Source of the DNA: Duncaniella sp.
GTDB lineage: Bacteria; Bacteroidota; Bacteroidia; Bacteroidales; Muribaculaceae
Assembly (NCBI GenBank): GCA_023664955.1
Contig: JAMPEV010000002.1
Location: forward strand, 1-46,408
Direction of reading: 5' to 3'
DNA length: 46,408 nucleotides
Shown: positions 5,173 through 23,880 of the stretch, one piece after another
Position numbering within the stretch: position 1 is the stretch's first letter
Layout of the letters: every line of letters starts with the position of its first letter
Translations under genes and position numbers: made by a program
The notes under the pieces: generated by a model
The model's input: only the letters and a program-made list of their open reading frames with translations
The model's database searches: none
Told to the model about the DNA's origin: nothing

Positions 5173-5204
5173 TTTGGTGAATACTGCAAAACCCCTTACC
5201 TTTG
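5173..5204 (+). promoter_or_regulatory. Bacteroidota-type promoter for small RNA candidate
   Basis: TTTG at 5173-5176, a 20-bp spacer, then TACCTTTG at 5197-5204: a perfect match to the Bacteroidota promoter. No plausible gene follows on this strand before a strong terminator about 65 nt downstream. Confidence 0.75.
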
Positions 5205-5210
5205 TAACGT

Positions 5211-5277
5211 GTTTTTCATGGTATTAGATTTAAGGTTAACTAAGATTGATTGTCGGGAGACAATCAATTTTTTTTTT
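5211..5277 (+). ncRNA. Candidate small RNA or conserved short leader (~65 nt)
   Basis: Between a perfect promoter (5173-5204) and a perfect intrinsic terminator (5245-5277) lies a unit of about 65 nt with no credible ORF. The 5' half is AT-rich and includes TGGTATTAGATTTAAGG. It points into the intergenic space after the hmu operon, which is transcribed the other way, so it is not the leader of a downstream gene. I have an impression that similar promoter-proximal sequence recurs in other Bacteroidales, and paralogous sRNA families are reported in Bacteroides, but I cannot verify a match. The predicted start is inferred from the -7 box. Confidence 0.6.
5245..5277 (+). terminator. Intrinsic terminator of the small RNA
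   Basis: A perfect 10-bp stem (ATTGATTGTC / GACAATCAAT) with a GGGA tetraloop is followed directly by nine T residues (5269-5277). It is oriented for the plus strand. Confidence 0.85.
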
Positions 5278-5501: not shown

Positions 5502-5828
5502 CTATTCCGGAACGTAGATTATGTCGCCGTTTTCGAGCTCGTAGGCGGTGCCTACGCGTTTGCCTTTGTTACCGGATGAGTTGTTATCCTCCGACGGAGT
5601 GTAACGGTTAATCTTCTCCCCTTCTTTGGTGATTATTTCCATATTCTCCTTGCCCGGATTTTTCACCATGGTGAAATCCTCCTGCGAAAACATTTCAGTC
5701 ATGTTGTAACGGCTTACGAGGGCAACCATCAGAGCGACAGCAAACACCATCGCCACATCGAAGAGATTGCTTACGACGCTCATCGGGTCAGTATCCTCGC
5801 CGCGTTGTAAAAGTCTGTGTCTTCTCAT
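5502..5828 (-). CDS. hmuV: DUF2149 protein, HmuV-like
   Basis: This 108-residue protein opens with a short basic cytoplasmic stretch and the DUF2149 hallmark DPMSVVSNLFDVAMVFAVAL. One membrane helix (about residues 22-42) is followed by a small soluble domain that ends in a conserved-looking GDIIYVPE. The layout (short cytoplasmic N-terminus, single helix, extracytoplasmic domain) resembles ExbD, so it may be the partner of the ExbB-like channel encoded just upstream; that role is inferred. Its start overlaps the channel gene stop by 4 bp. It is the final gene of the heme operon, equivalent to hmuV of Porphyromonas gingivalis. Confidence 0.75.
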   Translation of the reverse strand: MRRHRLLQRGEDTDPMSVVSNLFDVAMVFAVALMVALVSRYNMTEMFSQEDFTMVKNPGKENMEIITKEGEKINRYTPSEDNNSSGNKGKRVGTAYELENGDIIYVPE

Positions 5829-6430
5829 TTCTCGTTCTTGTTAGATTCCTTGATTACTTCAGCGAGATACTCAAGCATTGTTATATTCTTCACCGCCCAG
5901 CGTTCCTTAACTTGCTGTGTGAGGAAACCGATAGCACTTACCACAAGCCCCACGACAGTGGTGGCGAAGGCCACCTGCATATTATAAGCCATTGAAGCGA
6001 TGTCGCCGGTTGCAAGGCCCACCAATGCCGGACCCATCGGGATAAGTGTACCCATCAATCCGAGAATGGGGCCCATTTTGGTCAGAATCTTAGAAGTTGC
6101 CAGCTCCTTATCGGCATCAATCTCATACTGGGAAAGGAGCAGGTCAATTTTAGCCTTGTCATTACTATTGGCAATCAATTTCATCGCGTAGGCCATTACA
6201 ACTGAATTAGACCTTTCAGGAAGAGAGTCGCTAAATTCGCCGAGAGTAGCAGGTGAAAGCGTCTCGATGCGATTCCAAAAAGCCACAGTATGCTTCTTCA
6301 CTTGCATATACTGACCAAAGAAACCGCCCACTAAGATTATGGCACGAATGAAGAAGAATATAAGGAGCACAATCACCGGAACGAGCAAGCCGGTGGAAAT
6401 CCAGTAAAGGATATTTGAAATGACATTCAT
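5825..6430 (-). CDS. hmuU: MotA/TolQ/ExbB proton channel family protein, HmuU-like
   Basis: This 201-residue membrane protein has a first helix at about 10-32 and a cytoplasmic stretch. The channel core then contains the family signature GPILGLMGTLIPMGPALVGLATGD (about 115-138) and a last helix near 150-172. Proteins of this family conduct protons and drive a partner subunit, here probably the DUF2149 protein. It overlaps both neighbours by 4 bp (ATGA junctions), which indicates tight translational coupling. It is distinct from the second ExbB encoded at 34.7 kb, which has its own ExbD and TonB. The link to heme processing comes from operon context. Confidence 0.8.
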   Translation of the reverse strand: MNVISNILYWISTGLLVPVIVLLIFFFIRAIILVGGFFGQYMQVKKHTVAFWNRIETLSPATLGEFSDSLPERSNSVVMAYAMKLIANSNDKAKIDLLLSQYEIDADKELATSKILTKMGPILGLMGTLIPMGPALVGLATGDIASMAYNMQVAFATTVVGLVVSAIGFLTQQVKERWAVKNITMLEYLAEVIKESNKNEK

Positions 6431-7125
6431 TTTATACGAGATATAAGTTTATTTGTTACACGTTTATTGATGATTAGTCCGGCAACAGCGCCGATGATTA
6501 GCAGGCCGAAAATCCCCGCCAAAGCGTCCCACTCCACGGAGTTAGTGCCACGTACGGCGGTACGGCCATTGACGGTGGCGATTACTCCAAGAATCGCGGT
6601 TAGAGCGTTAATCATGAACATTAGTTCGAGCCGCAGGTCGCTTTCAGGAAGAAGCCATTTTATACCGAAAGTCAACACCGGGACACCGACAAACACACAA
6701 GCAGCGGTGGTCCATGCCAAAGTAGCAAAATCACTTCCAGGGAATGAGAAAATAATTTCCACGAGCATAGAAAACAATGTGGGGAAAATCAGTATTCCGG
6801 GGAACCACAGTGACACCGGGAGAATCACGGACTCTACATTGCTCAATCTTTCGCCTGAGAGCTTTTTAGCCATCATGATGCAGAATGTAATCTGGAAAAA
6901 CACATCGACAGTGAGGAGCACCGAGGTGTCGAGCATCAATTCCGGTTGGTTGAGCCAATCGGAAATCTGTACCTTAGATTGGCTAACCGCCACATCCCAC
7001 ATCATGCCGATGAAAGCGGCCACTATGGCGCAAAGCAGTATCTTACCGATTATGCCGTGGTAGGTTAACTTCAGGACGAAGTTAAACCCCACCAACAGCA
7101 TTATTATTACGATTACTATCTCCAT
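6427..7125 (-). CDS. hmuT: DUF2162-like integral membrane protein, HmuT-like
   Basis: This 232-residue protein is almost entirely hydrophobic, with about seven predicted membrane helices starting at the N-terminus (MEIVIVIIMLLVGFNFVLK). It matches the position and character of HmuT/DUF2162 in heme operons, where it always sits between the CobN-like chelatase and the proton channel. Its molecular role is unknown; a permease or a motor scaffold are both possible. It begins 3 bp after the hmuS stop and overlaps the channel gene by 4 bp. Confidence 0.7.
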   Translation of the reverse strand: MEIVIVIIMLLVGFNFVLKLTYHGIIGKILLCAIVAAFIGMMWDVAVSQSKVQISDWLNQPELMLDTSVLLTVDVFFQITFCIMMAKKLSGERLSNVESVILPVSLWFPGILIFPTLFSMLVEIIFSFPGSDFATLAWTTAACVFVGVPVLTFGIKWLLPESDLRLELMFMINALTAILGVIATVNGRTAVRGTNSVEWDALAGIFGLLIIGAVAGLIINKRVTNKLISRIK

Positions 7126-7128
7126 CGA

Positions 7129-10100
7129 TTATTCGTTGAAATTGTTTTTCTTACGGCGGCGAAGGAGAATTACCACTCCGATGAGGGCTATCACTACAAC
7201 CACACCCACGATTATACCGTTGATGTGACTTGTAATCTGGTCGGTGGTGCTGAGTTCCTCTTTCTGCATTACCATGCCATCATTATCGCCTGATATGTTT
7301 TCAGCACGAATCTGACCTATTGACTGGTTATATTTGTCAGCAGTCTCCTTTGATACTTTTGATGCGATGAATTCACGAAGTTTGGCATTATCGCACACAA
7401 AGCCGGAGCAAGAGGGTTGATACTCGTTCACAATTTCAGTGTGGAGGTCGGCAATAGCTGAAATCTGTTCTGGTGAGGCATCCCACATACCCTTGCGCAC
7501 GGTTTCGAGCATCACGGCTGTAATCTCCTCGATAGCAGCAGGATTGGAAGAGGTGAAATAATCTTTCACTCCAAGGTTGTTCTTATCCTGCACATAGGTA
7601 TCGTAGATGTCATCCCAAAGCTCGTCATCTATTGCGTCGGGTTTCATCACGTTCCAGCCGTATGTGTTGCGCACCACATCGGCAATACCGGAAGCATCGC
7701 CCGAACCGCCTTTCATCTTATTCTTGATGTAATTGGGATTGAGGATGGTGGTACGGCTTTCTACACCGATAGCCTCCTTTACCTCTTGCATACGAGCTTT
7801 GTTGCGGTTACGATAGTCACTTAGGTAGGCTTCGGGATCCTTCCCTGTCACATTCTTAACAGCAAGGTTCATACCACCCATGAACTCATAAACGTGATCA
7901 AGGCTAAGTGCGCCCCAGGTGTTGCTCTGACGAGGTTGAACCACAACGTCAGTACGAGTAAGGGCAGCCTCGAATACATAGTCGTGCATCTGTTCCCATT
8001 CCTCTTCACTGCCATAAACGGCACCCATATTGTTCATGTAGGTTTCAGCGATTTCATTGCTGTCCTCCCAACGATCTCCGGCTTCAACCATACTTTGGAT
8101 ACCGCTGCCATAGTTACCGTTGACACCGCCAAATACGCGAGCAGTGGCAAGTTCTCGGGCTTCCTTCGGGGTTATTCCCTTATTCACGAGGTGTTGCTCG
8201 GATTCCACCACGCCTTCAGCCACATAGTTGGGATATTCGTCATCCTCTGCGGCAGCAACCATCTTGACGGCACGGCTGATGAGGAACAGACGAGAAGCGG
8301 CTAAGTCACGCAATTGACCACTGGTCTGAACGACCACATCAATTCTCGGACGTCCAAGTTCCTTGGAGGGGATGAGCTTGAGGTCTGTTACACGTCCAAA
8401 CGGGTCACGAACGGGTTCTACACCAAGCATATAAAGTACTTGAGCGATTGTAGCACCTTCCGTCTCAATAAATTCACTACTCCAAAGGGTGTAGCTGACT
8501 TTACGCGGCACAGAATCGCCATGTGCTTTGCGATACATATCGATTGTATTGTCGGCCAATCCTTTACCCTTTTCCCAAGCCACTACCGAAGGGGTTTCCT
8601 CAGCATTGACGGCGAACATATTGCGACCGGTGGGGAGAATATTAGGATTGAGTACCGGGTCTCCGCCTGAAGTCGGGGCTATATACCCGCCATTCAAAGC
8701 ATTTACCACAGAAGAAAGTTCATTAGCCGGACTGGTTTTAAGTGCTTCCTTGTAACGGCTCACATTACCGATGGCACGAGATACTTCCGAAACAGCCATT
8801 GCGAATTCGAGTTGTTCTTTGCCGGGAGCGGATGAAGTACCCATTCCCATTCCCTTCGGCGCTCCACTTTTACCCATACCGGCAGGAGCGGCCGATGCAC
8901 CGCCATTGGCTTTTCTCTTCATCGCCGCCTCCATTTTCTTGATTGCCTCCTCATCGGCCCCCATCTTTCTTGCCATTTCGATGGCTTTTTCAGGGCTCAT
9001 TCCGGCAGCCGACATCATTTTCTTCATACCGGAAGTGTTGGGACGATCAGAAATCTTGAGGGTCGTTTTACCATCTTGAGGCATCATGGAACCTAATACC
9101 ATCATGCGCGATAGCATATCCTTAGAATTATCAATGGCACGCACAATGGCACGCGCGCTATCGAGTTCGGCTGCTGTGATACCAGCGATGCGACATATTT
9201 CCGCATCGTCAACACTACGTCCGGAGTTCAAAAGTGAATTGACAAGAGCCTTAGCATTGTTGGTGTAAGTACGAGTAAACTGCGCGCGGTTCTTATCGTA
9301 ATCAATATTGGTGCGACCACGCTGTTTGTCAAGATTGTATAGACTATATGCAATCGGGTCGACAGTCATAGCATAAACTGTTGAGTTGATGTTCTCCTGT
9401 TCGTAAGGCTTACCGATTACGTAAAGAGCTCCGGTAATCTTCTCGTTGGCAAGCTCCTCGGCAAAATTCTCAATACGCAGAATATCATCCGATGAATACG
9501 GAGTTGAAAGGACACTGTCAAGACGCAATTCGCGGTGTATACCAAGGTCGACGGTAAATTTCTTAACCATCAAAGAAGCTTTATTGAGAGCCGATTCCGA
9601 AGGATTGTCAGCACCCAACAAACGGTTATAGTCAGCGATAGCATCAGAGAGGTTTTTGTATATGCCCCTAACCTCACTCTCCATGAATGGAGGGGTAAGG
9701 TAGTTGATAATGCTCGTATATGAGCGACGTTTAGCAATCATGGCTTCACCCACATTGCTGGTGGAGTAGAGATAGAAGTGGGGCATAGTGCCGATGAGGC
9801 GATCAGGCCAGTCATTGCTGCCAAGCGCAACTTGCTTGCGGGGGGTGTACTCCAGGCTACCATGCGCGCCGAAATGAATCAACGCATCAGCATCAAAACC
9901 GTGACGAGCCCACAGGTAAGCAGCTACATAATTATGAGGGGGAGCGGCATCGGTGCCGTGTACTATCTGGAAACTATCGTCGCCAAGTCCAGCTGCGGTC
10001 TGTGGTATCAGCACCACATTGCCAAACTGCAAGCGGGCCAATGCAAGGTCACCATTGTCGGTTCTCAAACCATGGCCCGGGAAGGCACCGTCGACACTGT

Positions 10101-11475
10101 CAACGGCCTCACGCATGCCTGTTGGGAAGGATTTTCCAAACCATTCGTCATACTGATCAGCGTTGATAATCTCTGGCGAGTTTTTCTTGACAAATTCATC
10201 TTTAGCACCCATTGCATACTCATTGAACACCTTTCCCTGCTCGTTAATCTTCTTTTCAAGTTCAGCCGCAGATGAAGGGAGATTGTCAACCTTGTACCCT
10301 TCGGCTTTGAGTTTGAGAAGTAAATTGTACAGAGAAGGAGCCACTTCCATACCTTCGGCTACGAGGGAATTTTGCCCGGGACCCTTGAAATAGAATATAG
10401 CTATTTTCTTATCAGCATTGCTCATTGTGCGTAGAGAGGTGTAATTATTAACCATTTCCACAAAGTCGGTCAAGCGGTCAGGAATCGCTTGCACGTATGG
10501 CAGACCGTCTTCACCCTTGAAATGGGCGAAAAGGGTAAATGGTCGAATCGCGCCGTCAATTTCGGGGGTAACGATGCTCTGTGACATGAATCCACCGTTC
10601 ATACCCATCTTATCGGCCATCCATTCATCATAGTCACGGTTGGCATTAATGGGCGCAAACAATGGTATATTGTTATTTTCTAAATAGTTAACTACCATGT
10701 CACCCATGCGTCCGTGAGCCATGTTAATCAAGGCGGAGGTTGATATGGAATCAGCGTGCCCATTCTTGATGAAGAGCTGAATATTATTGACCGGATAAAC
10801 AACATTGCCGGTTCTCTCAAGAGCGGCAACGAGACTGTCAGGGACGCCCATCATACCGGTGAGGATGATTTTTGGTGCATCATCCTTCATTTTGCCCTTT
10901 TTGATGAGGAATTTCTCATAATCAGCCACAGAGTTAAAGCCAAGTTCTTCATCTCCTGGATAATACATTAGAGTAGAAGCAGCCGCTGTAGGATCACCCG
11001 GCTCATCAACGAAAAATTTCTTACCATCGATGAACTTGCGCACATAGCGGAGCATGTTACGATAATTATTCTTACCCCCGGTGAGATACATCTTTAGATA
11101 CTCGCTGTCGATTGAGTCAACCGAAATGATGTGATTCTGAGGATTAGTGGCACCGATAGTGAGCACAGGTGTGCCACTTTCAGCTGCCTTAATCAAGGCC
11201 TGACGCTGCTCGTCAGTGATGCGCAGTCCCATACCTGTCACGAATACCATGTCATAATCATCGGCTTTGTCAAGCTGATCGACAGGTAACTCCTTAATTT
11301 TCACGAAAGAATTATCATTTGCTTTGGAAATTTGACCCAAGTTAATGGTCTGGAAATTGACAAATGCTACCTTCGTAGAAGAAGCGAGATAATTCCAAAG
11401 CAGAAAGGCTGCGCCCAGAATTAAGGCGCAACCAACTGAGAGTAAAATTATTTTCTTCTTACTCATTTCTATCAA
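7129..11475 (-). CDS. hmuS: CobN/magnesium-chelatase H family protein, HmuS-like
   Basis: At 1448 residues this is a large-subunit chelatase homologue (CobN/ChlH/BchH family). The family core motif reads H534-FGA-H538-GSLE542-YTPRK, the counterpart of the HxGxHGxxE(W/F)xPGK motif near the metal/porphyrin site. Unlike cytoplasmic cobaltochelatases it has a membrane helix at each end (about 8-29 and 1415-1437, the latter followed by RRRKK). The body is therefore probably exposed to the periplasm. A Met/Ala/Gly-rich insert with about eleven Met lies near residues 805-890. HmuS homologues are linked to anaerobic heme use and metal removal; removing iron from heme is the likely job here, and other tetrapyrroles are possible. 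Its start overlaps the hmuR stop by 4 bp. Confidence 0.85.
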   Translation of the reverse strand: MIEMSKKKIILLSVGCALILGAAFLLWNYLASSTKVAFVNFQTINLGQISKANDNSFVKIKELPVDQLDKADDYDMVFVTGMGLRITDEQRQALIKAAESGTPVLTIGATNPQNHIISVDSIDSEYLKMYLTGGKNNYRNMLRYVRKFIDGKKFFVDEPGDPTAAASTLMYYPGDEELGFNSVADYEKFLIKKGKMKDDAPKIILTGMMGVPDSLVAALERTGNVVYPVNNIQLFIKNGHADSISTSALINMAHGRMGDMVVNYLENNNIPLFAPINANRDYDEWMADKMGMNGGFMSQSIVTPEIDGAIRPFTLFAHFKGEDGLPYVQAIPDRLTDFVEMVNNYTSLRTMSNADKKIAIFYFKGPGQNSLVAEGMEVAPSLYNLLLKLKAEGYKVDNLPSSAAELEKKINEQGKVFNEYAMGAKDEFVKKNSPEIINADQYDEWFGKSFPTGMREAVDSVDGAFPGHGLRTDNGDLALARLQFGNVVLIPQTAAGLGDDSFQIVHGTDAAPPHNYVAAYLWARHGFDADALIHFGAHGSLEYTPRKQVALGSNDWPDRLIGTMPHFYLYSTSNVGEAMIAKRRSYTSIINYLTPPFMESEVRGIYKNLSDAIADYNRLLGADNPSESALNKASLMVKKFTVDLGIHRELRLDSVLSTPYSSDDILRIENFAEELANEKITGALYVIGKPYEQENINSTVYAMTVDPIAYSLYNLDKQRGRTNIDYDKNRAQFTRTYTNNAKALVNSLLNSGRSVDDAEICRIAGITAAELDSARAIVRAIDNSKDMLSRMMVLGSMMPQDGKTTLKISDRPNTSGMKKMMSAAGMSPEKAIEMARKMGADEEAIKKMEAAMKRKANGGASAAPAGMGKSGAPKGMGMGTSSAPGKEQLEFAMAVSEVSRAIGNVSRYKEALKTSPANELSSVVNALNGGYIAPTSGGDPVLNPNILPTGRNMFAVNAEETPSVVAWEKGKGLADNTIDMYRKAHGDSVPRKVSYTLWSSEFIETEGATIAQVLYMLGVEPVRDPFGRVTDLKLIPSKELGRPRIDVVVQTSGQLRDLAASRLFLISRAVKMVAAAEDDEYPNYVAEGVVESEQHLVNKGITPKEARELATARVFGGVNGNYGSGIQSMVEAGDRWEDSNEIAETYMNNMGAVYGSEEEWEQMHDYVFEAALTRTDVVVQPRQSNTWGALSLDHVYEFMGGMNLAVKNVTGKDPEAYLSDYRNRNKARMQEVKEAIGVESRTTILNPNYIKNKMKGGSGDASGIADVVRNTYGWNVMKPDAIDDELWDDIYDTYVQDKNNLGVKDYFTSSNPAAIEEITAVMLETVRKGMWDASPEQISAIADLHTEIVNEYQPSCSGFVCDNAKLREFIASKVSKETADKYNQSIGQIRAENISGDNDGMVMQKEELSTTDQITSHINGIIVGVVVVIALIGVVILLRRRKKNNFNE

Positions 11476-13619
11476 ATAGCTTTAACTATATCATCCACAT
11501 CCAAGGAGATTCCCATGGACCATGTCCGGCCAGTGGTGGGAGCGGAATTCCAATAATAGATTTTAGGTTTATAATTTAGGAGATTGTCAATCACGAAATT
11601 GACATTTATCCCCTTCCAAATTTTTTGTTGAAGAGTAAATTTCCATAGGGTATATGCACCGTCGGTCTCATAGTCGCTCACAGGCTTTGCCATATATCGG
11701 CCTGACACACTGGCATATATCCGGTATGGGCTGCATATTTGCTTGTCGTAATCCACACGCCAAGTGGCTGAATGAGGACGTGGTTGAGTGAACTGTGAGT
11801 CTATCGAGCGTCCACCTACATGAAGGTAATTGTAACTTGCAGAGACTCCGAGTCCGATTATAGAGCGGTAACGTGCGTTAACATCGATACCCATCACCTT
11901 TACGCCATCCTCGTTGCAGTATATCGCCCCCTCCTCTTTGTCACCTTGCGCAGGGAAATCCATTGTGGTGATTCGGCTGTCATAGTAGTTATAATAACCT
12001 GAAAGAGTGAGACTGTAAGAGCCGCGAAGTGTGTGAGTGACAATCTGTCCGTTATGCTCCAGTGCAAGATTGAAGTTATGGCTCTTTTCGGGCTTCAAAT
12101 CCGGGTTCCCATAAATCATCTGAATACCTGCCATATCGAAGTCCATGTACATCTCCTTGAGAGTCGGCGCACGGAATCCTCCGGCATAAGATGCTCGGAT
12201 AGAGATGGGCTTGAACTTGAACATCGTGGCGAGACGTGCGGTCACTGCATTGTTGTCGGATGCTGAGAAGTAGTCCTCTCGAACACTTGCCACAACATTG
12301 AACCATGAAATCGGATTATAGTCAAATTGGGCGAATACGTCAAAGGTTGTCTGCGAGTGATCCGCATTATCCTTGAACTGGTAAGTGGTGAGATAATCGT
12401 GCATGAAATCACCACCGATTGTCAATCCGTTTAGACCCCAGAAGTGCGTGTAAAGACCGTGAACGATGTGTTGACGATTGCTATAGTCATGCTCATGGGT
12501 ACGCTGGCCACCGATGAAGCGAGCTTTGTCATACTGGTCATAACTATAGGATAGCTCTATGTTCTGGTCGCGTGAAATGTTCCACACTGACTTTAAGCCT
12601 CCGCTATAATCCTTGTAATGGTCGTCATAGTTGGCACGATTGCTCTCACGGTAGAAATAGCTTCCACGACCGATAAATCGCATCGCATCATTTACGCGAT
12701 ACACGAGGCGTTCCTTGGCATTAACGGTTTTGCCTCCGAAGATATCATGGATCTTCGATTCGGTATCGAACGCATCAGTGAGCTTGATGGTTTTGACAGT
12801 GGAATACTGAAGAGAAGTGTTAGAATTCCAATGCTTATCGTTGAAGTTAATATCACCTCCGGAGCGCCACTCATTACCGGCTGAGCGGTAACGTGAATTC
12901 ACATTCACACTCCATGGGTCTTTATTCTCGCGGGAGATGAGGTTAACCACTCCACCCACGGCATTGGCTCCATAAAGTGCTGACGACGCGCCTTTCACAA
13001 TTTCAACCTGACCTACATTCTCAAGGTTGAGACGGTTATAGTCAACGTTGTCCATTGTTTCGCCGGCGAGACGTTCACCATCCACAAGGAAAAGGATTGC
13101 GCTGCCTCCGAAGCCGCTCATGTTGAGCGATGTTTCCTGGCTCATTGCGTAGCCGAATTCCAGGCCGGGAAGCTCCTCGGTGAGGAGGTCCTGGATATTT
13201 GTGGCATCAGCCTTCTTGATATCCTCGGCAGAGATGAGGCGAGTCACCACCGGGGCATCTTTGAGGGTTTTAGGGGTGCGAGTGGCAGTTATGACTACCT
13301 CTTCGAGTGAAGTGAGGTCAGGAGTAAGACGAATCTCGTTATTAGAATTATCCTTCGGCTTCAGGATGTGGGTGTCAGTGATATAACCGATATACGACAC
13401 CCTAACCTTAGCAGCACCGTTTCCCTTAAAGGGCACAGTGAATTTGCCATTTTCATCAGTCACCACTGTGGTGTTGCTGTTCTCTACCGTAACGATTGCG
13501 CCGGGCAGAGGAGAACCGTTCTCGTCGAGCACTGTGCCGACAAATGCCTCGGCAAGTGCCACGACGGGGGTGAGAAGCCCGCAACATGCAAGTAGTATAT
13601 GTCTAAGACTTCTTTTCAT
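11472..13619 (-). CDS. hmuR: TonB-dependent heme/tetrapyrrole receptor, HmuR-like
   Basis: This 715-residue outer-membrane receptor has a signal peptide (to about residue 23) and a carboxypeptidase-regulatory-like domain (25-110). The plug domain (about 115-230) contains VEIVKGASSALYGANAVGGV, and a 22-strand-type barrel follows. The heme-receptor boxes are visible as GGFRAPTLKEMY near residue 480 and YGNPDLKPEKS shortly after, close to the FRAP and NPNL boxes. No His lies between these boxes, whereas many heme receptors have one, so ligand contacts may differ. It is followed by hmuS with a 4-bp overlap and preceded by the calycin-like lipoprotein gene. Energy would come from TonB, for example the set at 34.7-37 kb. 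Confidence 0.8.
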   Translation of the reverse strand: MKRSLRHILLACCGLLTPVVALAEAFVGTVLDENGSPLPGAIVTVENSNTTVVTDENGKFTVPFKGNGAAKVRVSYIGYITDTHILKPKDNSNNEIRLTPDLTSLEEVVITATRTPKTLKDAPVVTRLISAEDIKKADATNIQDLLTEELPGLEFGYAMSQETSLNMSGFGGSAILFLVDGERLAGETMDNVDYNRLNLENVGQVEIVKGASSALYGANAVGGVVNLISRENKDPWSVNVNSRYRSAGNEWRSGGDINFNDKHWNSNTSLQYSTVKTIKLTDAFDTESKIHDIFGGKTVNAKERLVYRVNDAMRFIGRGSYFYRESNRANYDDHYKDYSGGLKSVWNISRDQNIELSYSYDQYDKARFIGGQRTHEHDYSNRQHIVHGLYTHFWGLNGLTIGGDFMHDYLTTYQFKDNADHSQTTFDVFAQFDYNPISWFNVVASVREDYFSASDNNAVTARLATMFKFKPISIRASYAGGFRAPTLKEMYMDFDMAGIQMIYGNPDLKPEKSHNFNLALEHNGQIVTHTLRGSYSLTLSGYYNYYDSRITTMDFPAQGDKEEGAIYCNEDGVKVMGIDVNARYRSIIGLGVSASYNYLHVGGRSIDSQFTQPRPHSATWRVDYDKQICSPYRIYASVSGRYMAKPVSDYETDGAYTLWKFTLQQKIWKGINVNFVIDNLLNYKPKIYYWNSAPTTGRTWSMGISLDVDDIVKAI

Positions 13620-13625
13620 CTATCC

Positions 13626-14108
13626 TTATTTTTTTGGTGCTGTGAATGAGCATATCATCGGCATGGGCATATTGCCATACTGAAGATTGAATTGGATTTT
13701 GATAGTGTTAGATGCGAATGAACCGCTGAATGTGCCTGAGTAAGCTTTGCCGGCTGCTGTTTCACCCTTGAAAGTAGTTTCGGCAAGAGTGTAGGTGCCG
13801 TTTGTACCGGTTACTTTTACACCTTCCACTGTGATTGAGGGGAGCTGCATGGGAGGATTACCGAATGAAGGAAGAACCACGTTGACTGTAGCGTCATCGA
13901 CTGCTACCACGGATACGGTCAGGTTCTCGAACACATCGTCTTGGCCCATAACAGAGCAGGTCATATCGTCGGTGTAGGTGCCGCTGACTTCGCGAGCAGC
14001 GGGGGCTGCGGGTGCGTCATCATCATCGTCGTCAGAACATGAGGTGAAAGAGGCGAGGGAGAGTACACACACCATCATTGATGCGAAAATAGTCTTAAGC
14101 TTTTTCAT
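13626..14108 (-). CDS. Calycin-like domain surface lipoprotein
   Basis: This 160-residue lipoprotein has the lipobox ASFTSC followed by a run of Asp. That acidic run right after the lipid Cys is the Bacteroidota surface-export signal. The rest is a beta-rich domain with alternating Val/Thr strands resembling the calycin-like family of Bacteroides lipoproteins. The tail is Met-rich (YGNMPMPMICSF), which could contact a heme or metal, but that is speculation. It lies just upstream of hmuR, the place occupied by hmuY in Porphyromonas, and may be a functional stand-in for that hemophore-like protein. Confidence 0.65.
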   Translation of the reverse strand: MKKLKTIFASMMVCVLSLASFTSCSDDDDDDAPAAPAAREVSGTYTDDMTCSVMGQDDVFENLTVSVVAVDDATVNVVLPSFGNPPMQLPSITVEGVKVTGTNGTYTLAETTFKGETAAGKAYSGTFSGSFASNTIKIQFNLQYGNMPMPMICSFTAPKK

Positions 14109-14134
14109 TGTAGTAAAATGTTTTTGTTTTTTTA

Positions 14135-15658
14135 TTATTTGTTTATCTGTTTCTTAGTTGATTTGTGATGCCGGCAGTAGACTATCAAGCCGGAGATGAG
14201 GATGAGGGTGAGGAGCAGTCCTGAAACGAAGACGAACAGTTCGGAGAACGGGCCTAAGAAGGGTGAGTAGCAACGCCCCACATGCAGCTCCAACGCTGCG
14301 TTCCAAAGTGACATCGGCTGGCGTGCCATTTCCTCGTGCATCGGTGGCAATTCCGGTGCGCCTTTGGAGTAGTCAAACACTATCGGTGTACCATCTTTCA
14401 AGTCGGTTGTGTGACCGGAGACGAGAGTTGAGGCGAGAGCCATTCCGCGACGGGAGGGTTGATATGGCTTGCCGGTTGTTTGATCTATCACTTCCCCGCT
14501 CTTTTCATTCCAGTGGAATAGTCCGCTGAATGAGCCTATCAACCATTGACCAGGAGCCGTCTCTTCCATCACGGTGATTCCCATCGGGCTCACTGGTGGC
14601 GTTGCAGAAGTGATGGCCTCCGGTGTATCTGAAAAGTCGGGATTTATCTTGATAAAACCTTCAGAAGTGGAAATTAGCCATTTACCGGAAGCAGAATCCC
14701 ACCGGATACCGCGAAGCTTGTCATGCCATGCATTATCGCTGTCGAGTGTCGTCCCGGGAATAGGGGCTGTCTTTACAAGTACGAATGGTATCATCAAGGG
14801 TGGTCGCAGGCACATCCCGGTGAAAGCTATCAGCACAGTGAGAATAATCGTGTAAAAACCTATCCGGTTGTGCCATTTTAGGTTCCATTTCATGCACGAT
14901 GCCTCTTTCTTAGCGTTTTCTCGCTTGCTGTGATGGATGGTGTAAGGGAGGAGGAAGATGATTATACCTGTAGTGCCGAGAATGACGATTATAATTGCTA
15001 TAATATCGACAATCACACGACCTGCCATGCCGAATAATTCGCCACTGTGAAGCTGCCACACTGTCTTGAAGAGAGTTATTTCCGGCTTGTAGTTATCCAG
15101 GGCTTTGAGCTCTTTCCTAACGGGAATTGATGAATTGTCAAGAGGGAGAGTATATACAGCTGAACGTGTGAGCACAATCAGTTGAGCACTGTCGGGAGAG
15201 AGGGTTATGTCGGAGAGCCGCTCGTCGTTACCCGGAAGTGGCACCTCTGTCCAAGTGTCATCGCAGTGGGAGAAGAGTCCGAATTGCGCCGCAGCCCAAA
15301 TGTGTCCGTCGCGGTCCTGCACCACGTTGCGGATGTTTCGATTATCTATGCCTTTGGGGAATCCGGCATTGAAATCCGTAAATTCGCTGAATTGACGGTC
15401 GGAAAGCCACGCGCCAACATTGCCGAATACTAACACTTTGTTGCTATCCAAAGGCAATGTGCCTTTGACGCTGCCATTATTATACCGGTTGAGCCGGTAG
15501 CTGTCGGGGAGGAGCGAACGGCTTATGTCACAGCCGGAAAATGCTGCTCGATGGTTGAGAATTACGCCTGATACACAGAAAAGCAATATGAATACAGTCA
15601 GGATTACTCCTGCCCATTTGTGGAAGCTTTTCCAGTTCAGTTTATTATTCTTCGCCAT
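14135..15658 (-). CDS. PepSY-associated TM protein, putative iron/heme reductase
   Basis: This 507-residue inner-membrane protein has four main helices (about 14-35, 212-240, 268-285, 475-497). Histidines flank them in the PepSY-TM pattern: FHKW (H13), ILNH (H36), WQLHSG (H204), H242/H243, KWHNRIG (H263) and ELHVGR near 468. PiuB/FoxB-like members of this family reduce ferric siderophores and bind heme through such His. The two large periplasmic loops carry short Trp-rich repeats (GHIWAAAQFGLF, GKWLISTSEGF, GQWLIGSFSGLF) like single propeller blades. As first gene of the heme operon it may deliver electrons for iron release. This role is inferred from family and context. Confidence 0.7.
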   Translation of the reverse strand: MAKNNKLNWKSFHKWAGVILTVFILLFCVSGVILNHRAAFSGCDISRSLLPDSYRLNRYNNGSVKGTLPLDSNKVLVFGNVGAWLSDRQFSEFTDFNAGFPKGIDNRNIRNVVQDRDGHIWAAAQFGLFSHCDDTWTEVPLPGNDERLSDITLSPDSAQLIVLTRSAVYTLPLDNSSIPVRKELKALDNYKPEITLFKTVWQLHSGELFGMAGRVIVDIIAIIIVILGTTGIIIFLLPYTIHHSKRENAKKEASCMKWNLKWHNRIGFYTIILTVLIAFTGMCLRPPLMIPFVLVKTAPIPGTTLDSDNAWHDKLRGIRWDSASGKWLISTSEGFIKINPDFSDTPEAITSATPPVSPMGITVMEETAPGQWLIGSFSGLFHWNEKSGEVIDQTTGKPYQPSRRGMALASTLVSGHTTDLKDGTPIVFDYSKGAPELPPMHEEMARQPMSLWNAALELHVGRCYSPFLGPFSELFVFVSGLLLTLILISGLIVYCRHHKSTKKQINK

Positions 15659-15686: not shown

Positions 15687-15717
15687 CAAAATTATATAAT
15701 AATAAAAAAATGGGAAA
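15687..15717 (-). promoter_or_regulatory. Probable promoter of the heme operon
   Basis: The minus-strand -7 box TAATTTTG (15687-15694) is preceded after 19 bp by TTTC (15714-15717), one base off the TTTG -33 box. The predicted start near 15680 leaves a leader of only about 22 nt. The surrounding DNA is very AT-rich and could hold an iron-responsive operator, but I cannot point to a convincing palindrome. Confidence 0.55.
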
Positions 15718-15999
15718 TACCTAAAATGTGGGATTTTTATCTCGATTTTTTAATCAATAATATGTATGTTGCCGGTTAGGATACAAAAAACTAATCATTT
15801 TTGGGTAAGGCATCGAAAATGTTAAGTAATCAATTTTTGCAATCCCGCTTCATTTGGTGGAGCTTAAGGATGTGAATCCCAAGCAACAAATGTCCCCTTT
15901 CAAAAACTTTGCCATACGATGGTTTGTTGTAACTAAGAATGTATACCGCGTGCGTCGGTATTAACAACTGCCTACATAAACATATAAACTACAAACCTA
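15718..15999. other. Intergenic region between heme operon and transporter
   Basis: The first half is AT-rich and lies just upstream of the heme-operon promoter. I see no gene, RNA or strong hairpin here, and no clean Bacteroidota promoter for the plus-strand transporter. The closest candidate, AAACTTTG at 15904-15911, lacks both the TA pair and a -33 box. Confidence 0.4.
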
Positions 16000-19812: not shown

Positions 19813-22800
19813 TTAGTTGTTACCAGTTGTAATATTCAACGGAATCTTGCAAACTACTTTTGAGAATGTGTTGCTTGTACCTGAGTTGAATCTTGCAGTT
19901 GCTTCGATAGTAAGGGTCTTACCTTCTACGAGAACAGCACCAGGAACATAAGTAACTTCACCAGTTGCAGAGTTGATTTCAAGCTTACCGGCTGCCATAC
20001 CCTTAATGTACTCCTTAGAAGCCTTATCGAAGTCGTATGATACAGTATAATTAGTAACCTTGTAACCAGTAGCAGCAGTTGCGATGTCAGAGAGGATGAG
20101 ATCATAAACTGCAGCAGTTGTAACATTGCCATTTGCATCAGTTACGGCAGGTGTTTTAACGCCCCATGAGAGGATTGTAGAACCATTGTGGTCGTTAACA
20201 ACGAGTGACGGCTTAACATTGAGCGGTGCTGCAAGAGGAGCGTTACCGTTGAGTGTGATAGCTGTACCAGTTGTACCTACGAACGGATTGTTGAATGTGA
20301 TTGCCAACTCGTAAGCCTTCGGACAAATTTCGCCATTAGCGAGAGTGAGTTCGAATTCGATAGTAGCAGTAGCAGGTTCATAATCCAAACCAGCAGCAGT
20401 CAACTTAATCATGCGGATACGAGCAAGAGCTGCGTAGTAAGCAGAGATTTCAGCTGCAGTTGGGTTATAAGGATCAGTAAATCCTGGGATTGAAACAACA
20501 TTACCAGATGCATCGCATGGAGCAAGGAGGTCAGTCATTTTACCGCTGATCTTCTGCTGTGGGATATCAATACCTGTGAATGTAATAGCCTTAACATTGT
20601 TAAGAGTATTAGTACCATCGAGGTAAGTGAAGATATCAGTGTTGTTATCACCGCGCATGAATGCGTTAGTGAGCTGGAACAACATTGAATAATTACCGTT
20701 AGTTGCTGGATAGAGAGCACCGAATGTAGTAACAGCGTTGTTAGAAACGAAGTTACTGTAGATTGGAGCTTCGTGAGTTTCAGTAACAGTTACAGTCTTA
20801 GAGATTACAACATTACCAAGAGTTGCAGGAGTTGAAGAATTGTAAGTGATGTCAATGTTGTAAGTAGCAGCAGGACCGGCAATCTGTACAGGATTTCCAC
20901 TGTTAAGAGCCTGTTTATCTGCACCCTTAGCATTCTTCAACTGACCATCCTGAGTGTGGATCAAGTTGTTAACCCATACCTGGATAGGAGCGTTAGTAGT
21001 AGTTGCATCAGCAGAGAGGTTACAGCTTACATAGAGACCTGGAACGTCATTGTTGTAGTAAACAGATGCGTTGCTGCCACCAGCTACAGTTGCAGGACCT
21101 GAGAATTCGTAAACAGCATTACCCTTCTTAGAGCCATTGTTCCAAGTTACAGGGATAGTAACTTTTACAGTAGGACCAGTGTACTTAGTGTTGAATTCAA
21201 CTGAGTTCAAACCAACAGCGTCATAAATCTGAGTGTTGATAGCCTGCCAGCCGAGTTCAGCAACCTTCTGGTTAGTCTTGCTGTTACCTACGCTATTAGG
21301 TTTAGCGATAGTAGAGTAAGTAAGATCAGCGCTGCCTGAAGTAGGAATAGTTACGTTAACATCATCCTTAGAACCAGTAGCCTTAACGATTTGAACCTTG
21401 ATGAAAGCAGTAGCAACAAGAGCGTTGCCTACGTATGCATCAACTTGTACGATAGGAGTGCGACCTTCAGGTGAAGTAGTGTAAGCAGGATTTACTGAAA
21501 GAACAGTACCATTGAGAGTAACGAATACCTGCTGGTCAGTCTGACCAATAACGTAAGATGCGGGAAGTGAATATACATAGCTTACATTATTGTAACCAAG
21601 ATCTTCAAGGAAAGAACCTTGAGTAGAAGCGTTGCCAGTATAGAGACCTGCGAAATTAGCGAGATCAACAGGCTGCTGAAGACCAAGTTCAATAGCTGTT
21701 TCAGTATTACCAGTTACGAACTGGTTGATGTACTGAGTAACTGTCTGGTTAGAAGCAGCAGGAGCTTTAGTAATTTCAGCGATGTCAGCAGTATAAGCTA
21801 CTTTATTCTTAGTGGTCTTAGCCTTGTCAACGAGGACTGCAGTTACATTCTTCTGGTTAACCAAGAGGAAGTCAGAAGTAAACATATTCTGACCGTTGGT
21901 GAGTTGAAGAGCAGCGATAGGATCCTTTCTACCATCCTTATCCTTGTCGTTTATAATATCATTGTAAGCAGAAAGGTTGATAGAAGTTGAAACTGAAACA
22001 ACATCATCAGAAGTGCTTTCAACGATAGAACCAGAAAGAAGCTTGTTGCTATCACCAGTTGCACGTGAAGCAGCGATATTAGCATCACGATCGATATATG
22101 ATACAGAAGCAGAAGGAGCTACAAATGCGTCAGCTGGATTCTTACGATAGTTTATAACAACTTCGTTAGAAACGTTAAGCGCATTTTTGCTCTTTGCCCA
22201 ATCTTTACCAGGGATAGTGTTGGCCTTATCAATTGATTTATTTTGAAGAGTGGTGAAAGTAACCAAGGGGAAACCGCTGTTGAAATCATCAGCAACAACT
22301 GCGATAGAAGTAAGAGTAATACCAACCTGAATCTTTACGGGATCGAGAGTCTTACCGTCAGCGTCCTTAAGGTTAGAAAGGATGAGTGTAGTACCGTCGA
22401 AAGAAGCAGTAGGACCAGCGGCTACCCAGCTGATGTCAGTAGCTTCGATGAGCTTGCCATCCTGATAGATGTCGAACTTGCCGGTTTCTTCGTTTGGCAC
22501 ATAGTACTTACCGTTTTCACCGGGCTTGCCAGCTTCGCCGGCAGCGCCAGACTTGGGAACTGCGAGGTTGTCGGTCTTAACGCCGTCGCAATACCAGTAA
22601 CCGTCAGGACCGATAGTCCAAACAGTACCGTTCTTTCCAGGTTCGCCCTGAGGACCCTGCGCACCGTCCTTACCATTGTAAACGGTGACAGTCTTGCCGT
22701 CAGACATTGTGAAGACGAAACCATCAGAAGTAGAGGTAACGCCGGTGATCACGCCGCCCTTAGCAACAATCGCCTTAAGCTCGTCTACAGATGCCTTGAT

Positions 22801-22923
22801 ATTATTAATCTGACCCTGCAGATCATTAATATCATCATCGTAGTCCTTGCAAGAGGTGAAGCAGCCTGCTGTACCTACCATGAGGGTAGCGAGCAGGAGC
22901 CCGTTGATGAATTTTTTGTTCAT
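19813..22923 (-). CDS. Large surface lipoprotein with collagen-like triplets (DUF4988-like N-terminus)
   Basis: I start this protein (1036 residues) at 22923 (MNKKFING) rather than at the upstream ATG 22977, because only this start places the signal peptide at the N-terminus. The lipobox FTSC (Cys25) is followed by KDYDDD, a surface-export signal. A predicted coiled coil (about 30-55) leads into Gly-X-Y triplets at 84-99 and 126-138, spaced by a Trp/Tyr-rich segment (VWTIGPDGYWYCDG), then about 800 residues of beta-rich repeats. Codon choice is narrow, suggesting high expression. A 174-nt leader with a long hairpin precedes it. It stands alone. A structural or adhesive surface layer role is a guess. 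Confidence 0.65.
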   Translation of the reverse strand: MNKKFINGLLLATLMVGTAGCFTSCKDYDDDINDLQGQINNIKASVDELKAIVAKGGVITGVTSTSDGFVFTMSDGKTVTVYNGKDGAQGPQGEPGKNGTVWTIGPDGYWYCDGVKTDNLAVPKSGAAGEAGKPGENGKYYVPNEETGKFDIYQDGKLIEATDISWVAAGPTASFDGTTLILSNLKDADGKTLDPVKIQVGITLTSIAVVADDFNSGFPLVTFTTLQNKSIDKANTIPGKDWAKSKNALNVSNEVVINYRKNPADAFVAPSASVSYIDRDANIAASRATGDSNKLLSGSIVESTSDDVVSVSTSINLSAYNDIINDKDKDGRKDPIAALQLTNGQNMFTSDFLLVNQKNVTAVLVDKAKTTKNKVAYTADIAEITKAPAASNQTVTQYINQFVTGNTETAIELGLQQPVDLANFAGLYTGNASTQGSFLEDLGYNNVSYVYSLPASYVIGQTDQQVFVTLNGTVLSVNPAYTTSPEGRTPIVQVDAYVGNALVATAFIKVQIVKATGSKDDVNVTIPTSGSADLTYSTIAKPNSVGNSKTNQKVAELGWQAINTQIYDAVGLNSVEFNTKYTGPTVKVTIPVTWNNGSKKGNAVYEFSGPATVAGGSNASVYYNNDVPGLYVSCNLSADATTTNAPIQVWVNNLIHTQDGQLKNAKGADKQALNSGNPVQIAGPAATYNIDITYNSSTPATLGNVVISKTVTVTETHEAPIYSNFVSNNAVTTFGALYPATNGNYSMLFQLTNAFMRGDNNTDIFTYLDGTNTLNNVKAITFTGIDIPQQKISGKMTDLLAPCDASGNVVSIPGFTDPYNPTAAEISAYYAALARIRMIKLTAAGLDYEPATATIEFELTLANGEICPKAYELAITFNNPFVGTTGTAITLNGNAPLAAPLNVKPSLVVNDHNGSTILSWGVKTPAVTDANGNVTTAAVYDLILSDIATAATGYKVTNYTVSYDFDKASKEYIKGMAAGKLEINSATGEVTYVPGAVLVEGKTLTIEATARFNSGTSNTFSKVVCKIPLNITTGNN

Positions 22924-23039
22924 TTGAAAAAAATTTAAGTTATAACTTTGGTTATTTTGGTGTTTGTTATAATTCAAAAGGTAAATTTGATAGAATTAGC
23001 ACCTGTTAGGGTGGTTAGATTTAAATTGCACATTTTCAG

Positions 23040-23078
23040 CGAGTAAGGCTGATTTCACAGGAAATCAGGGGATACTCG
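23040..23078 (-). promoter_or_regulatory. Two-tier stem-loop in leader of the surface lipoprotein
   Basis: The inner stem is CTGATTTC (23049-23056) / GAAATCAG (23061-23068) with a 4-nt loop. The outer stem is CGAGTA (23040-23045) / TACTCG (23073-23078). It lies near the 5' end of the predicted transcript, where such structures often stabilise abundant mRNAs. Confidence 0.5.
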
Positions 23079-23102
23079 GATGTATAGAAAACAATTTTAG
23101 TA

Positions 23103-23110
23103 CAAAGGTA
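23103..23110 (-). promoter_or_regulatory. Probable -7 box for the surface lipoprotein gene
   Basis: A perfect TACCTTTG on the minus strand. No TTTG is visible at the -33 position. The predicted start near 23097 gives a leader of about 174 nt. Confidence 0.5.
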
Positions 23111-23194
23111 ATTGAAAGTATTTGAGGTAGAGATATAATTTTGTTGCGGTTTTCATACGTTAGTGTTGCGGGTTTGACACAGTTTTTTTTGATT

Positions 23195-23291
23195 GTAGGG
23201 ACGCACCATGGTGCGTCCTCAAGGGAGCATGGGGGGATGTACCGTGATTCGGCGACCCCGGTTGGGAGGACGCACCATGGTGCGTCCCTAC
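23195..23291. repeat. Inverted pair of REP-like palindromes (copies 3 and 4) with a second module between
   Basis: Copy 3 (GTAG 23195-23198, palindrome 23199-23218) points right. Copy 4 (palindrome 23268-23287, CTAC 23288-23291) points left. Between them lies the second module, read as GATGTACCGTGATTCGGCGA followed by CCCCGGTTGGG. This head-to-head arrangement resembles the paired REP units (BIMEs) of enterobacteria. It lies upstream of the surface lipoprotein promoter. Confidence 0.85.
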
Positions 23292-23373
23292 TTTTCAATT
23301 GTTAATTTTGTTTTCGTGGTGCAAAGGTAGGGATAATTTTTTGATTGTGAAAGAGATGAAAGGATATTTGGGG

Positions 23374-23733
23374 TTATTTAAGAGATTTTTGGTGAAAATC
23401 GGGGGAATGTAGGGACGCACCATGGTGCGTCCACCCAGATCGGGGTAGCCCATTTGGGGTTGATTTTCGACGGTTTAGACGGTTTAGACGATGTACCGTG
23501 ATTCGGCGACCCCGGTTGGGCATAACTACCGATAAGGGTACTTCAACGTAGGGATAGTGCGTCGGGATTTGAGCAATTGATTTCTGTGTAAATTCTCCTA
23601 TATCGGAGAGGTGCATTTTGTCATCTACTATGTTACCAAAGTATCGGGTGTGATCTAAGGTGCAGATTGTAATGAAGTATAGACCGCCGGAGTAGTTGTG
23701 GAAGTTGGCGCGCGGAGATTTGCGATTCATCAT
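23374..23733 (-). pseudogene. REP-associated tyrosine transposase (RAYT) fragment, N-terminal
   Basis: Residues 1-73 match the N-terminus of Y1-type REP-associated transposases: NYSGGLYFITICTLDH, then YFGNIVDDKMHLSDIG, then VEVPLSVVMPN. In intact proteins MPN leads directly into the catalytic His-x-His. Here it changes to RGRRITV, which is the second repeat module read in frame. The join lies at CCCAACC, present both in the gene and in the repeat. The rest (catalytic Tyr and C-terminus) is absent, so this copy cannot be active. Palindrome copy 5 (23413-23432) lies within the replaced part. If the repeats still move, a complete RAYT elsewhere in the genome must act. Confidence 0.8.
23409..23520. 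repeat. REP-like copy 5 with two inverted second modules
   Basis: GTAG plus the palindrome (23409-23432) is followed by a degenerate second module (CCCAGATCGGGGTAGCC from 23435), two tandem TTTAGACGG units near 23475-23495, and an inverted second module ending CCCCGGTTGGG at 23520. The whole block replaces the 3' part of the RAYT gene. Confidence 0.75.
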
Positions 23734-23799
23734 TGGATTGTTGTTTTAGAGATTTGATGCAAAGATATGGAAATAGAGGTTTATATCCAAATAAATATA

Positions 23800-23841
23800 G
23801 CCGCCCGGCGGGTTCCTCGTGGGAGGATGACGTCGGGCGGC
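23800..23841 (-). terminator. GC-rich hairpin after the Sus-like operon
   Basis: GCCGCCCGGCG (23800-23810) pairs with CGTCGGGCGGC (23831-23841), allowing one G-U pair, with a further TCCTC/GAGGA-type stem inside. It lies 60 bp past the last Sus gene. There is no T-tract, so it is either a weak terminator or an mRNA 3'-end structure. Confidence 0.5.
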
Positions 23842-23880
23842 GTTCGTAGAGTGAAATAAGGGGCGAATTCAGGTTGGGGT

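What the first reader, a model, noticed from the sequence alone, without database searches (positions are those of the whole stretch)
5502..15658. Heme-processing operon with a PepSY redox protein and calycin lipoprotein added
The order PepSY, calycin-like lipoprotein, HmuR, HmuS, HmuT, HmuU, HmuV has overlapping starts and stops in its HmuR-to-HmuV part. It joins an outer-membrane receptor, a membrane-anchored chelatase and a proton-channel pair with a likely electron donor. The known hmuYRSTUV operon lacks the PepSY gene, and the calycin-like protein takes the HmuY place. A proton-driven, redox-assisted machine that removes iron from heme at the membrane would be a coherent and little-described system.
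Basis: partly seen in the sequence, partly recalled or inferred. Interest (0 to 1): 0.7.

Follow-up and report, generated by a model that had tools for sequence, protein, structure and literature searches.

The report
Heme-iron operon with added reductase gene
A gut bacterium's known gene set for pulling iron out of heme begins here with an extra gene for a probable membrane electron carrier, which may be the so far unidentified source of the electrons that this iron-removing enzyme needs.

Summary
HmuS is a full-length relative of the solved B. thetaiotaomicron heme de-chelatase (9d26) and keeps its heme ligands and catalytic residues. That reaction was published in 2025, so the core is known. 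The calycin gene is not an addition: calycin-like genes stand in 57 of 80 named HmuS loci. But in 12 of the 80 a single-domain calycin stands where HmuY is missing, so 'takes the HmuY place' holds. The PepSY gene is the interesting part. It is the first gene behind a promoter element shared by many hmu operons, it is the gene next before hmuS in six other genomes from five other Bacteroidales families, and it has five conserved histidines of a transmembrane cytochrome and similarity to the reductase FoxB. Two HmuS papers leave the electron donor of HmuS unresolved. This gene is a candidate in these lineages, not a universal one: 24 of 37 HmuS genomes lack it, and it also occurs with HmuR-HmuY without HmuS and, more often, near nitrite-reductase or stress genes. 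Verdict: a real, new variant of a known system with a testable mechanism for an open step.

The parts
15687..15721 (-). hmu promoter element GGTATT-N21-TAATTTTG (-7 box 15687-15694), 28 bases before the PepSY start codon
   Evidence: only match to GGTATT-N17..24-TAnnTTTG in the window; same element, up to one mismatch in GGTATT, in 44 of 81 hmu upstream regions; sequence
14135..15658 (-). PepSY_TM protein, 507 aa, four hydrophobic segments, conserved His 13, 36, 204, 263, 459; candidate transmembrane electron carrier
   Evidence: PF03929 E 3.5e-25; FoxB 7abw by profile E 2.7e-6; His; hydropathy
13626..14108 (-). single-domain calycin-like lipoprotein, 160 aa, lipobox Cys24 followed by SDDDDDD, no His, conserved MPM
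   Evidence: PF13944 E 8.4e-19; alignment
11472..13619 (-). HmuR, TonB-dependent receptor, 715 aa, with CarbopepD_reg_2 domain
   Evidence: in one clade with ten other single-calycin HmuRs
7129..11466 (-). HmuS heme de-chelatase, 1445 aa from ATG (1448 aa from TTG at 11475)
   Evidence: 9d26 over residues 6-1444, 1854 bits; key residues
6427..7125 (-). HmuT, polytopic membrane protein, 232 aa
5825..6430 (-). HmuU, MotA/TolQ/ExbB-type proton channel, 201 aa
   Evidence: PF01618 E 2.1e-9
5502..5828 (-). HmuV, DUF2149, one hydrophobic segment, 108 aa
   Evidence: PF09919 E 1.4e-35

Best explanation
This is an hmu heme-iron operon without HmuY. Transcription most likely starts at the hmu-type promoter before the PepSY gene. 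Heme is captured at the cell surface by the calycin-like lipoprotein and passed to HmuR, which carries it into the periplasm with TonB energy (inferred). There HmuS, anchored at both ends in the inner membrane, takes Fe(II) out and leaves protoporphyrin IX (shown by others for the B. thetaiotaomicron protein; inferred here from conserved residues). The reaction needs ferrous heme. The PepSY_TM protein is proposed to be the membrane b-type cytochrome that brings electrons from the quinone pool or the cytoplasm, over two histidine-ligated hemes, to ferric heme in or near HmuS, most likely the Met79/His254 heme of site 1. Fe(II) then enters through FeoB. HmuT-U-V form a separate proton-driven membrane complex with an unknown role in this cycle.
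For: HmuS: full-length match to 9d26; M79, H254, H538, E577 and the Asp-His pair present in all 14 PepSY-linked HmuS, the window's included. PepSY: family and FoxB similarity, five conserved His, at both membrane faces by hydropathy. Linkage: PepSY is the gene next before hmuS, same strand, in G073, G132, G216, G220, G250 and G342 (gaps -8, 120, 28, 387, 4, 53 bases), five family codes other than the window's. On the HmuS tree the PepSY label changes 9 times, at least 8 forced by starred branches, so the pairing recurs. Co-regulation: the hmu promoter element stands before PepSY in 6 of 7 PepSY-first operons. Same transporter + surface lipoprotein + PepSY layout as Xus (PMC13142918 passages). 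Only PepSY_TM gene found in this 82.7% complete genome. HmuS needs reduced site 1 heme and its donor is unknown (PMC12583661 discussion); donor also unresolved in PMC13227078 (passages).
Against: 24 of 37 HmuS-positive genomes in the order sample have no PepSY of this subfamily at E 1e-10, and HmuS of B. thetaiotaomicron works in a six-gene operon described without it, so another donor exists. PepSY is in none of 57 HmuY-type named loci. In six loci HmuR-HmuY-PepSY stands without HmuS beside it, three of them in genomes with no CobN-family match. 51 of 90 classed relatives outside the window lie near Rrf2, Hcp, NrfHA, cupin, ferredoxin or hemerythrin-type genes, so the subfamily is not heme-specific. 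L042 lacks the promoter element, and in L040 and L065 it lies inside the ORF as called, which needs a later start. No heme binding, redox or expression data exist for these proteins. FeoB was not found in this incomplete genome, though all 12 same-genus relatives searched have it.
Confidence: 0.48

Rival explanations
1. PepSY serves the outer-membrane module, not HmuS: lipoprotein-HmuR-PepSY is a Xus-like uptake unit in which PepSY reduces the cargo (free heme or another ferric chelate) as it enters the periplasm, whatever enzyme acts next.
For: HmuR-HmuY-PepSY without HmuS beside it in L145, L147, L150, L155, L194, L195. The 11 single-calycin HmuRs in the tree form one clade while their HmuS proteins are mixed with HmuY-type ones, so HmuR and calycin travel apart from HmuSTUV; in L105 PepSY-Cal-HmuR follows HmuSTUV as a block. 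PepSY with a transporter and surface lipoprotein is the Xus layout.
Against: In six genomes PepSY is the gene next before hmuS. In 4 of 11 single-calycin named loci with enough sequence upstream the module lacks PepSY.
Confidence: 0.3
2. The operon handles another tetrapyrrole or metal complex (cobalamin, another metalloporphyrin), as has been proposed for operons without hmuY.
For: PMC10100974 (section 12) lists this as one of two possibilities for operons without HmuY (pattern 011111 in 385 species). HmuR also resembles the vitamin B12 receptor family, 117 bits, far below its cut-off.
Against: Best HmuR family hit is the heme/hemoglobin receptor family, 160 bits, also below its cut-off. HmuS keeps the HmuS-specific heme ligands M79 and H254 and scores far lower against CobN structures (336 bits or less) than against HmuS (1854). 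The promoter element is shared with HmuY-type operons.
Confidence: 0.12
3. PepSY is a general periplasm-facing electron carrier of nitrosative or redox stress that has been placed by chance or for regulation in some hmu operons.
For: 51 of 90 classed relatives stand near Rrf2, Hcp, NrfHA, cupin, ferredoxin or hemerythrin-type genes.
Against: Repeated pairing with hmu genes: 20 hmu-linked rows need 8 changes on the PepSY tree against 18.3 in shuffles; six operons have the hmu promoter element before PepSY. No NrfHA, Hcp or Rrf2 family matched among the 27 window ORFs scanned; a few window ORFs were not scanned.
Confidence: 0.1

Closest known systems
hmuYRSTUV operon of Bacteroides thetaiotaomicron (BT0497-BT0491) with HmuS heme de-chelatase
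   Same: HmuR, HmuS, HmuT, HmuU, HmuV in the same order; HmuS key residues
   Different: no HmuY; single calycin-like lipoprotein in its place; PepSY_TM gene at the front. The B. thetaiotaomicron promoter itself was not examined here
XusABC xenosiderophore system (BT_2063-2065)
   Same: TonB-dependent transporter, surface lipoprotein and PepSY inner membrane protein in one locus
   Different: lipoprotein is DUF4374 there and calycin-like here; here joined to HmuSTUV
FoxB-type PepSY_TM siderophore reductases (7abw)
   Same: PepSY_TM membrane part, four hydrophobic segments, conserved His at both faces
   Different: no Pfam PepSY domain found; soluble segments resemble beta-propeller blades of hybrid sensor kinases
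Hmu operons with pepSY and cal genes in PMC12106395 Figure 1 (legend only seen)
   Same: both gene types are named as hmu neighbours
   Different: no function, promoter or phylogeny of these two genes in the passages seen

Membership tests
HmuS heme de-chelatase | full-length similarity to 9d26 | tested here: met
   residues 6-1444, 1854 bits
HmuS heme de-chelatase | site 1 heme ligands Met79 and His254 | tested here: met
   present in the window; each in 91 of 92 aligned HmuS (positions read)
HmuS heme de-chelatase | His538, Glu577 and the Asp1208-His1209 pair | tested here: met
   present in the window; the Asp-His pair was placed by its motif, not by numbering
HmuS heme de-chelatase | methionine-rich insertion | tested here: met
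   16 Met in 105 residues
HmuS heme de-chelatase | iron removal from heme | not testable with these tools
   needs assay
hmuYRSTUV operon | HmuR, S, T, U, V in order | tested here: met
hmuYRSTUV operon | HmuY hemophore (PF14064) | tested here: not met
   none in the operon; none found in the genome (where no control rang and the genome is 82.7% complete)
PepSY_TM / FoxB-type reductase | PepSY_TM domain | tested here: met
   PF03929 E 3.5e-25; 30 of 30 aligned members
PepSY_TM / FoxB-type reductase | four membrane helices with His on both faces | tested here: met
   hydropathy and conserved His; no structure model
PepSY_TM / FoxB-type reductase | periplasmic PepSY domains as in FoxB | tested here: not met
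   no such Pfam match at E 0.01 in 30 members; similarity to sensor beta-propellers instead
PepSY_TM / FoxB-type reductase | heme binding and reductase activity | not testable with these tools
   needs assay
Xus system | TBDT, surface lipoprotein, PepSY in one locus | tested here: met
   surface signal read by eye
Xus system | DUF4374 lipoprotein | tested here: not met
   lipoprotein is Calycin_like

The most novel reading that the evidence does not exclude
The PepSY_TM protein is the dedicated electron donor of the heme de-chelatase: a transmembrane di-heme cytochrome that reduces the Met/His-ligated site 1 heme of HmuS, making iron removal from heme a membrane-coupled, respiration-linked step, with the same cytochrome family serving periplasmic nitrite reductase in other genomes.
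Probability: 0.35. Interest if true: 0.78.

Novelty: new variant of a known kind. Interest (0 to 1): 0.55.

Why it matters
[quoted passage not shown] A gene of a known reductase superfamily, behind the hmu promoter and repeatedly paired with HmuS, gives a named candidate to test. It also gives a reading for operons without hmuY, for which a 2023 survey raised the possibility that they do not transport heme at all.

Tried and rejected
Rejected: the calycin gene as a novelty (PMC12106395 legend). Rejected: that PepSY is needed by every HmuS. Rejected: that this PepSY subfamily is heme-only. The sigma-70 consensus scan gave no useful promoter; the -7 consensus TAnnTTTG, recalled as the Bacteroides type, did. 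The promoter element as a wider iron regulon in this genome was not supported: of six exact whole-genome sites (reversed control two), four others precede ORFs that read by eye as housekeeping or regulatory and one an unassigned short ORF; none was checked against a library. The class-level search for the HmuS family added little: 5 of 296 genomes, two of them outside the order. PDB search with the PepSY protein alone hit only a sensor propeller; the 30-row profile found FoxB.

Own errors and limits: the first ORF caller missed genes by keeping false overlapping ORFs (for example HmuR in L038), so searches replaced it. The calycin profile used there is built on the single-domain type and undercounts the multi-domain type; joins both searches and counts fused forms. 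L154 was cut wrongly in the first PepSY tree, where it made a long branch, and was dropped; two fragments under 400 aa (L229, L230) were left out of both trees. The HmuR tree has 49 rows out of 54 loci that I chose, 11 of the 13 single-calycin loci among them (L046 gave no HmuR, L065 was not on my list), and it warns of long branches meeting among distant rows. The HmuS tree is a FastTree; 15 of its 92 rows bore no label. The promoter element was seen first in the PepSY-led loci and L105 and then counted in all 81, so those first loci are not an independent test.
Full report
What is there. The finding is correct on the anatomy. On the minus strand between 15658 and 5502 lie seven co-directional ORFs: PepSY_TM (507 aa), a calycin-like lipoprotein (160 aa), HmuR (715 aa), HmuS (1445 aa from ATG), HmuT (232 aa), HmuU (201 aa), HmuV (108 aa). 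Pfam supports six; HmuT has no Pfam match and was recognised by a profile of HmuT relatives beside HmuS in other loci. Spacers are 26, 6, 5, 3, -4 and -4 bases. The upstream neighbour, an amino acid permease starting at 16000, is divergent. The next gene downstream, a DNA gyrase/topoisomerase IV subunit A gene ending its reading at 2197 and starting at 4884, is on the same strand but 617 bases away, with a small RNA on the other strand between. The genome is an unnamed assembly of 2.18 Mb, 82.7% complete; the nearest named PepSY rows are from Muribaculaceae. In this family HmuS is uncommon: 5 of 59 genomes, the window's included, have a CobN-family match over the cut-off.

HmuS passes the sequence tests available for a heme de-chelatase. 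It aligns over residues 6-1444 with 9d26, the HmuS heme de-chelatase entry, at 1854 bits, while ChlH and CobN structures score 397 bits or less. In an alignment of 92 HmuS proteins, Met79 and His254 (the site 1 heme ligands) are each kept in 91, His538, Glu577 and the Asp of the Asp-His pair in 92, and the His of that pair in 91; all 14 PepSY-linked proteins, the window's included, keep all six. The methionine-rich insertion is present (16 Met in 105 residues), and there is one hydrophobic segment at each end. It is the only gene of its Pfam family found in the genome. The chemistry itself was shown by others (PMC12583661: abstract, introduction and the first part of the discussion read).

The calycin gene is not an addition, but it does take HmuY's place. 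None of the 12 has HmuY. Of the 57 HmuY loci, 45 also carry a calycin-like gene by one of two searches, fused forms counted. Pfam confirmed the calycin-like label in three representatives from HmuY loci and two from single-calycin loci, and HmuY in four representatives. In L092 (uncultured Odoribacter) a calycin-like match lies nested inside HmuY. So calycin-like proteins are common partners of HmuY-HmuR, and in the window's lineage a single one remains. It has a lipoprotein cysteine followed by SDDDDDD, which resembles the Bacteroidota surface export signal (recalled), an invariant Met-Pro-Met motif in 16 aligned sequences, and no histidine; heme binding by two histidines, as in P. gingivalis HmuY, is therefore excluded, binding by methionine is not. 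Its best solved relative is an uncharacterised outer membrane protein, 3rwx.

The PepSY gene. It belongs to PF03929, with four hydrophobic segments and five histidines, His13, 36, 204, 263 and 459, invariant in a 30-row alignment and kept in 64, 66, 68, 67 and 67 of 68 rows in a wider one. By position, 13 and 263 lie at the cytoplasmic side and 36, 204 and 459 at the periplasmic side (inference from hydropathy). A profile of 30 relatives finds FoxB (7abw) at E 2.7e-6, over profile positions 196-241 around His204 only, and beta-propellers of hybrid sensor kinases at 6e-8 to 9e-8 over the soluble segments, as sums of weak single repeats. So the membrane part is FoxB-like, while the soluble part looks propeller-like and no Pfam PepSY domain matched. 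FoxB is described as carrying two hemes, each held by two histidines, passing electrons to a siderophore in the periplasm (PMC13038864 and PMC11334425 passages).

Where the PepSY gene stands elsewhere. In one sample of 392 Bacteroidales genomes, 37 have a CobN-family match and 87 have this PepSY at E 1e-10; 13 have both (read off the two lists; about 8 would be expected if independent). In 7 of these 13, the window's genome included, the two are in one gene run. In the six others PepSY is the gene next before hmuS, with gaps of -8, 28, 387, 120, 4 and 53 bases in L152, L170, L175, L179, L180 and L183, in five family codes other than the window's. In three more (G221, G348, G356) PepSY follows HmuR and HmuY at another locus. 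With a few thousand genes per genome, chance adjacency in 13 genomes would give well under one case (rough estimate). Against this, three genomes without a CobN-family match also carry HmuR-HmuY-PepSY (G065, G071, G104). Of the 92 PepSY matches outside the window, all fetched, 12 are in hmu context, 51 near Rrf2, Hcp, NrfHA, ferredoxin, cupin or hemerythrin-type genes (a loose class: any one such label in the stretch), 27 elsewhere or unassigned, and 2 were fragments not classed. Among the 80 named loci PepSY is in 7, all of the single-calycin type, and in none of 57 HmuY loci, 48 of which have at least 5 kb upstream of hmuS.

History. On the PepSY tree (97 rows, L154 dropped) the hmu-linked label needs 8 changes, at least 5 forced by starred branches, against 18.3 in shuffles; the window lies in a starred set of nine, eight hmu-linked and one whose contig ends at the gene. 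On the HmuS tree the PepSY label needs 9 changes, at least 8 forced, against 13.2 in shuffles. The 11 single-calycin HmuRs in the HmuR tree form one fully supported clade, B. heparinolyticus included, though their HmuS proteins are mixed with HmuY-type ones. The simplest reading is that the outer-membrane module is exchanged against a more constant HmuSTUV core, and that PepSY linkage comes and goes.

Promoter. No TAnnTTTG box lies on the operon's strand between 5502 and 15658; the first one upstream is at 15694-15687, 28 bases before the PepSY start codon. GGTATT stands 21 bases before it. This element (consensus roughly ATTTTTAGGTATTG-N20-TAnnTTTGCA) occurs, with at most one mismatch in GGTATT at fixed spacing, at 44 of 67 TAnnTTTG sites in upstream regions of hmu operons and at 68 of 1136 such sites elsewhere in the same loci (exact GGTATT: 27 of 67 and 19 of 1136); 44 of 81 loci have it and 37 do not. 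The exact pattern was found in 14 of 1620 random stretches of these loci and in 0.03 of 81 on average after shuffling single bases. It stands before PepSY in the window, L038, L039, L040, L048 and L065, not in L042; in L040 and L065 it lies inside the ORF as called, which fits a later start. In L105 it stands before HmuS, the first gene there. Its exact form occurs once in the window. This is the best evidence that PepSY is the first gene of the hmu transcription unit; no RNA data were available. What binds the element is unknown; the literature on hmu regulation was seen only as one search listing.

Mechanism. [quoted passage not shown] the 2026 paper on the P. gingivalis enzyme leaves the in vivo donor unresolved and thinks membrane redox components most plausible (PMC13227078 passages). 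A PepSY_TM protein paired with HmuS fits this. The relatives beside NrfHA suggest that this subfamily may serve periplasmic heme enzymes in general (inference). Shown here are sequence identity, linkage and shared promoter; capture by the calycin protein, electron transfer and its target are inferred. Since 24 of 37 HmuS genomes lack this PepSY, it can be at most one of several donors. HmuU/HmuV are drawn as the TonB motor (PMC12583661 Figure 1 legend), but the window also has an ExbB-ExbD pair at 34742-35960 followed by an ORF that reads by eye as TonB-like (no Pfam match to TonB), so HmuUV may have its own work at HmuS-HmuT.

What is known and what is new. The operon, HmuS and its reaction are known. 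pepSY and cal genes near hmu genes are named in one figure legend (PMC12106395). A full-text search of the held library for HmuS with PepSY returned that paper alone, and the word PepSY does not occur in the main texts of PMC12583661 and PMC13227078. Not found in print by searches and the passages read: the pairing of PepSY with hmuS across families, the shared promoter element, or the proposal that PepSY feeds HmuS; subscription papers are mostly not in the library. Operons without HmuY were counted in 385 species, with two possibilities given, a divergent HmuY or no role in heme transport (PMC10100974 section 12); the data here favour a third for this type, a heme system with the calycin protein in HmuY's place.

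Noticed in passing
window 5209-5277 (+): FopS small RNA (RF04319, 80 bits) converging on the 3' end of hmuV, with a TACCTTTG box at 5197-5204 and a terminator-like hairpin at 5242-5271. FopS RNAs are described as repressors of polysaccharide-use operons (PMC11697453 passages); a link to hmu was not seen.
   Followed up: partly
window 34742-36977 (+): Second motor set after pdxJ: ExbB, ExbD and a 306-aa ORF that reads by eye as TonB-like, so HmuU/HmuV need not be the TonB motor.
   Followed up: partly
L092 6685-7692; similarly long HmuY in L097 and L110: HmuY with a calycin-like match nested inside it (L092 by Pfam), a fusion of the two lipoprotein types of hmu operons; L097 and L110 were not scanned with Pfam.
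   Followed up: partly
L156, L181, L185, L197, L198, L201, L211, L212, L218: Full-length relatives of the window's PepSY protein stand in runs with NrfH and NrfA and, in many, Hcp, cupin, ferredoxin and Rrf2 genes, pointing to a general periplasm-facing electron carrier.
   Followed up: partly
upstream regions of 44 of 81 hmu operons: Conserved element GGTATTG about 20 bases before a TAnnTTTG box; the factor that reads it is unknown.
   Followed up: partly
window 11433-11407 (-): Terminator-like hairpin just inside hmuS, near the HmuR-HmuS junction where mRNA structure is reported for P. gingivalis (passage); 14 such sites were found against 8.8 expected in the stretch, so it may be chance.
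   Followed up: no
window 19813-31215 (-): SusC-like, SusD-like and two SusE/F-like genes and a 1054-aa DUF4988 protein: a polysaccharide-use-like locus.
   Followed up: no
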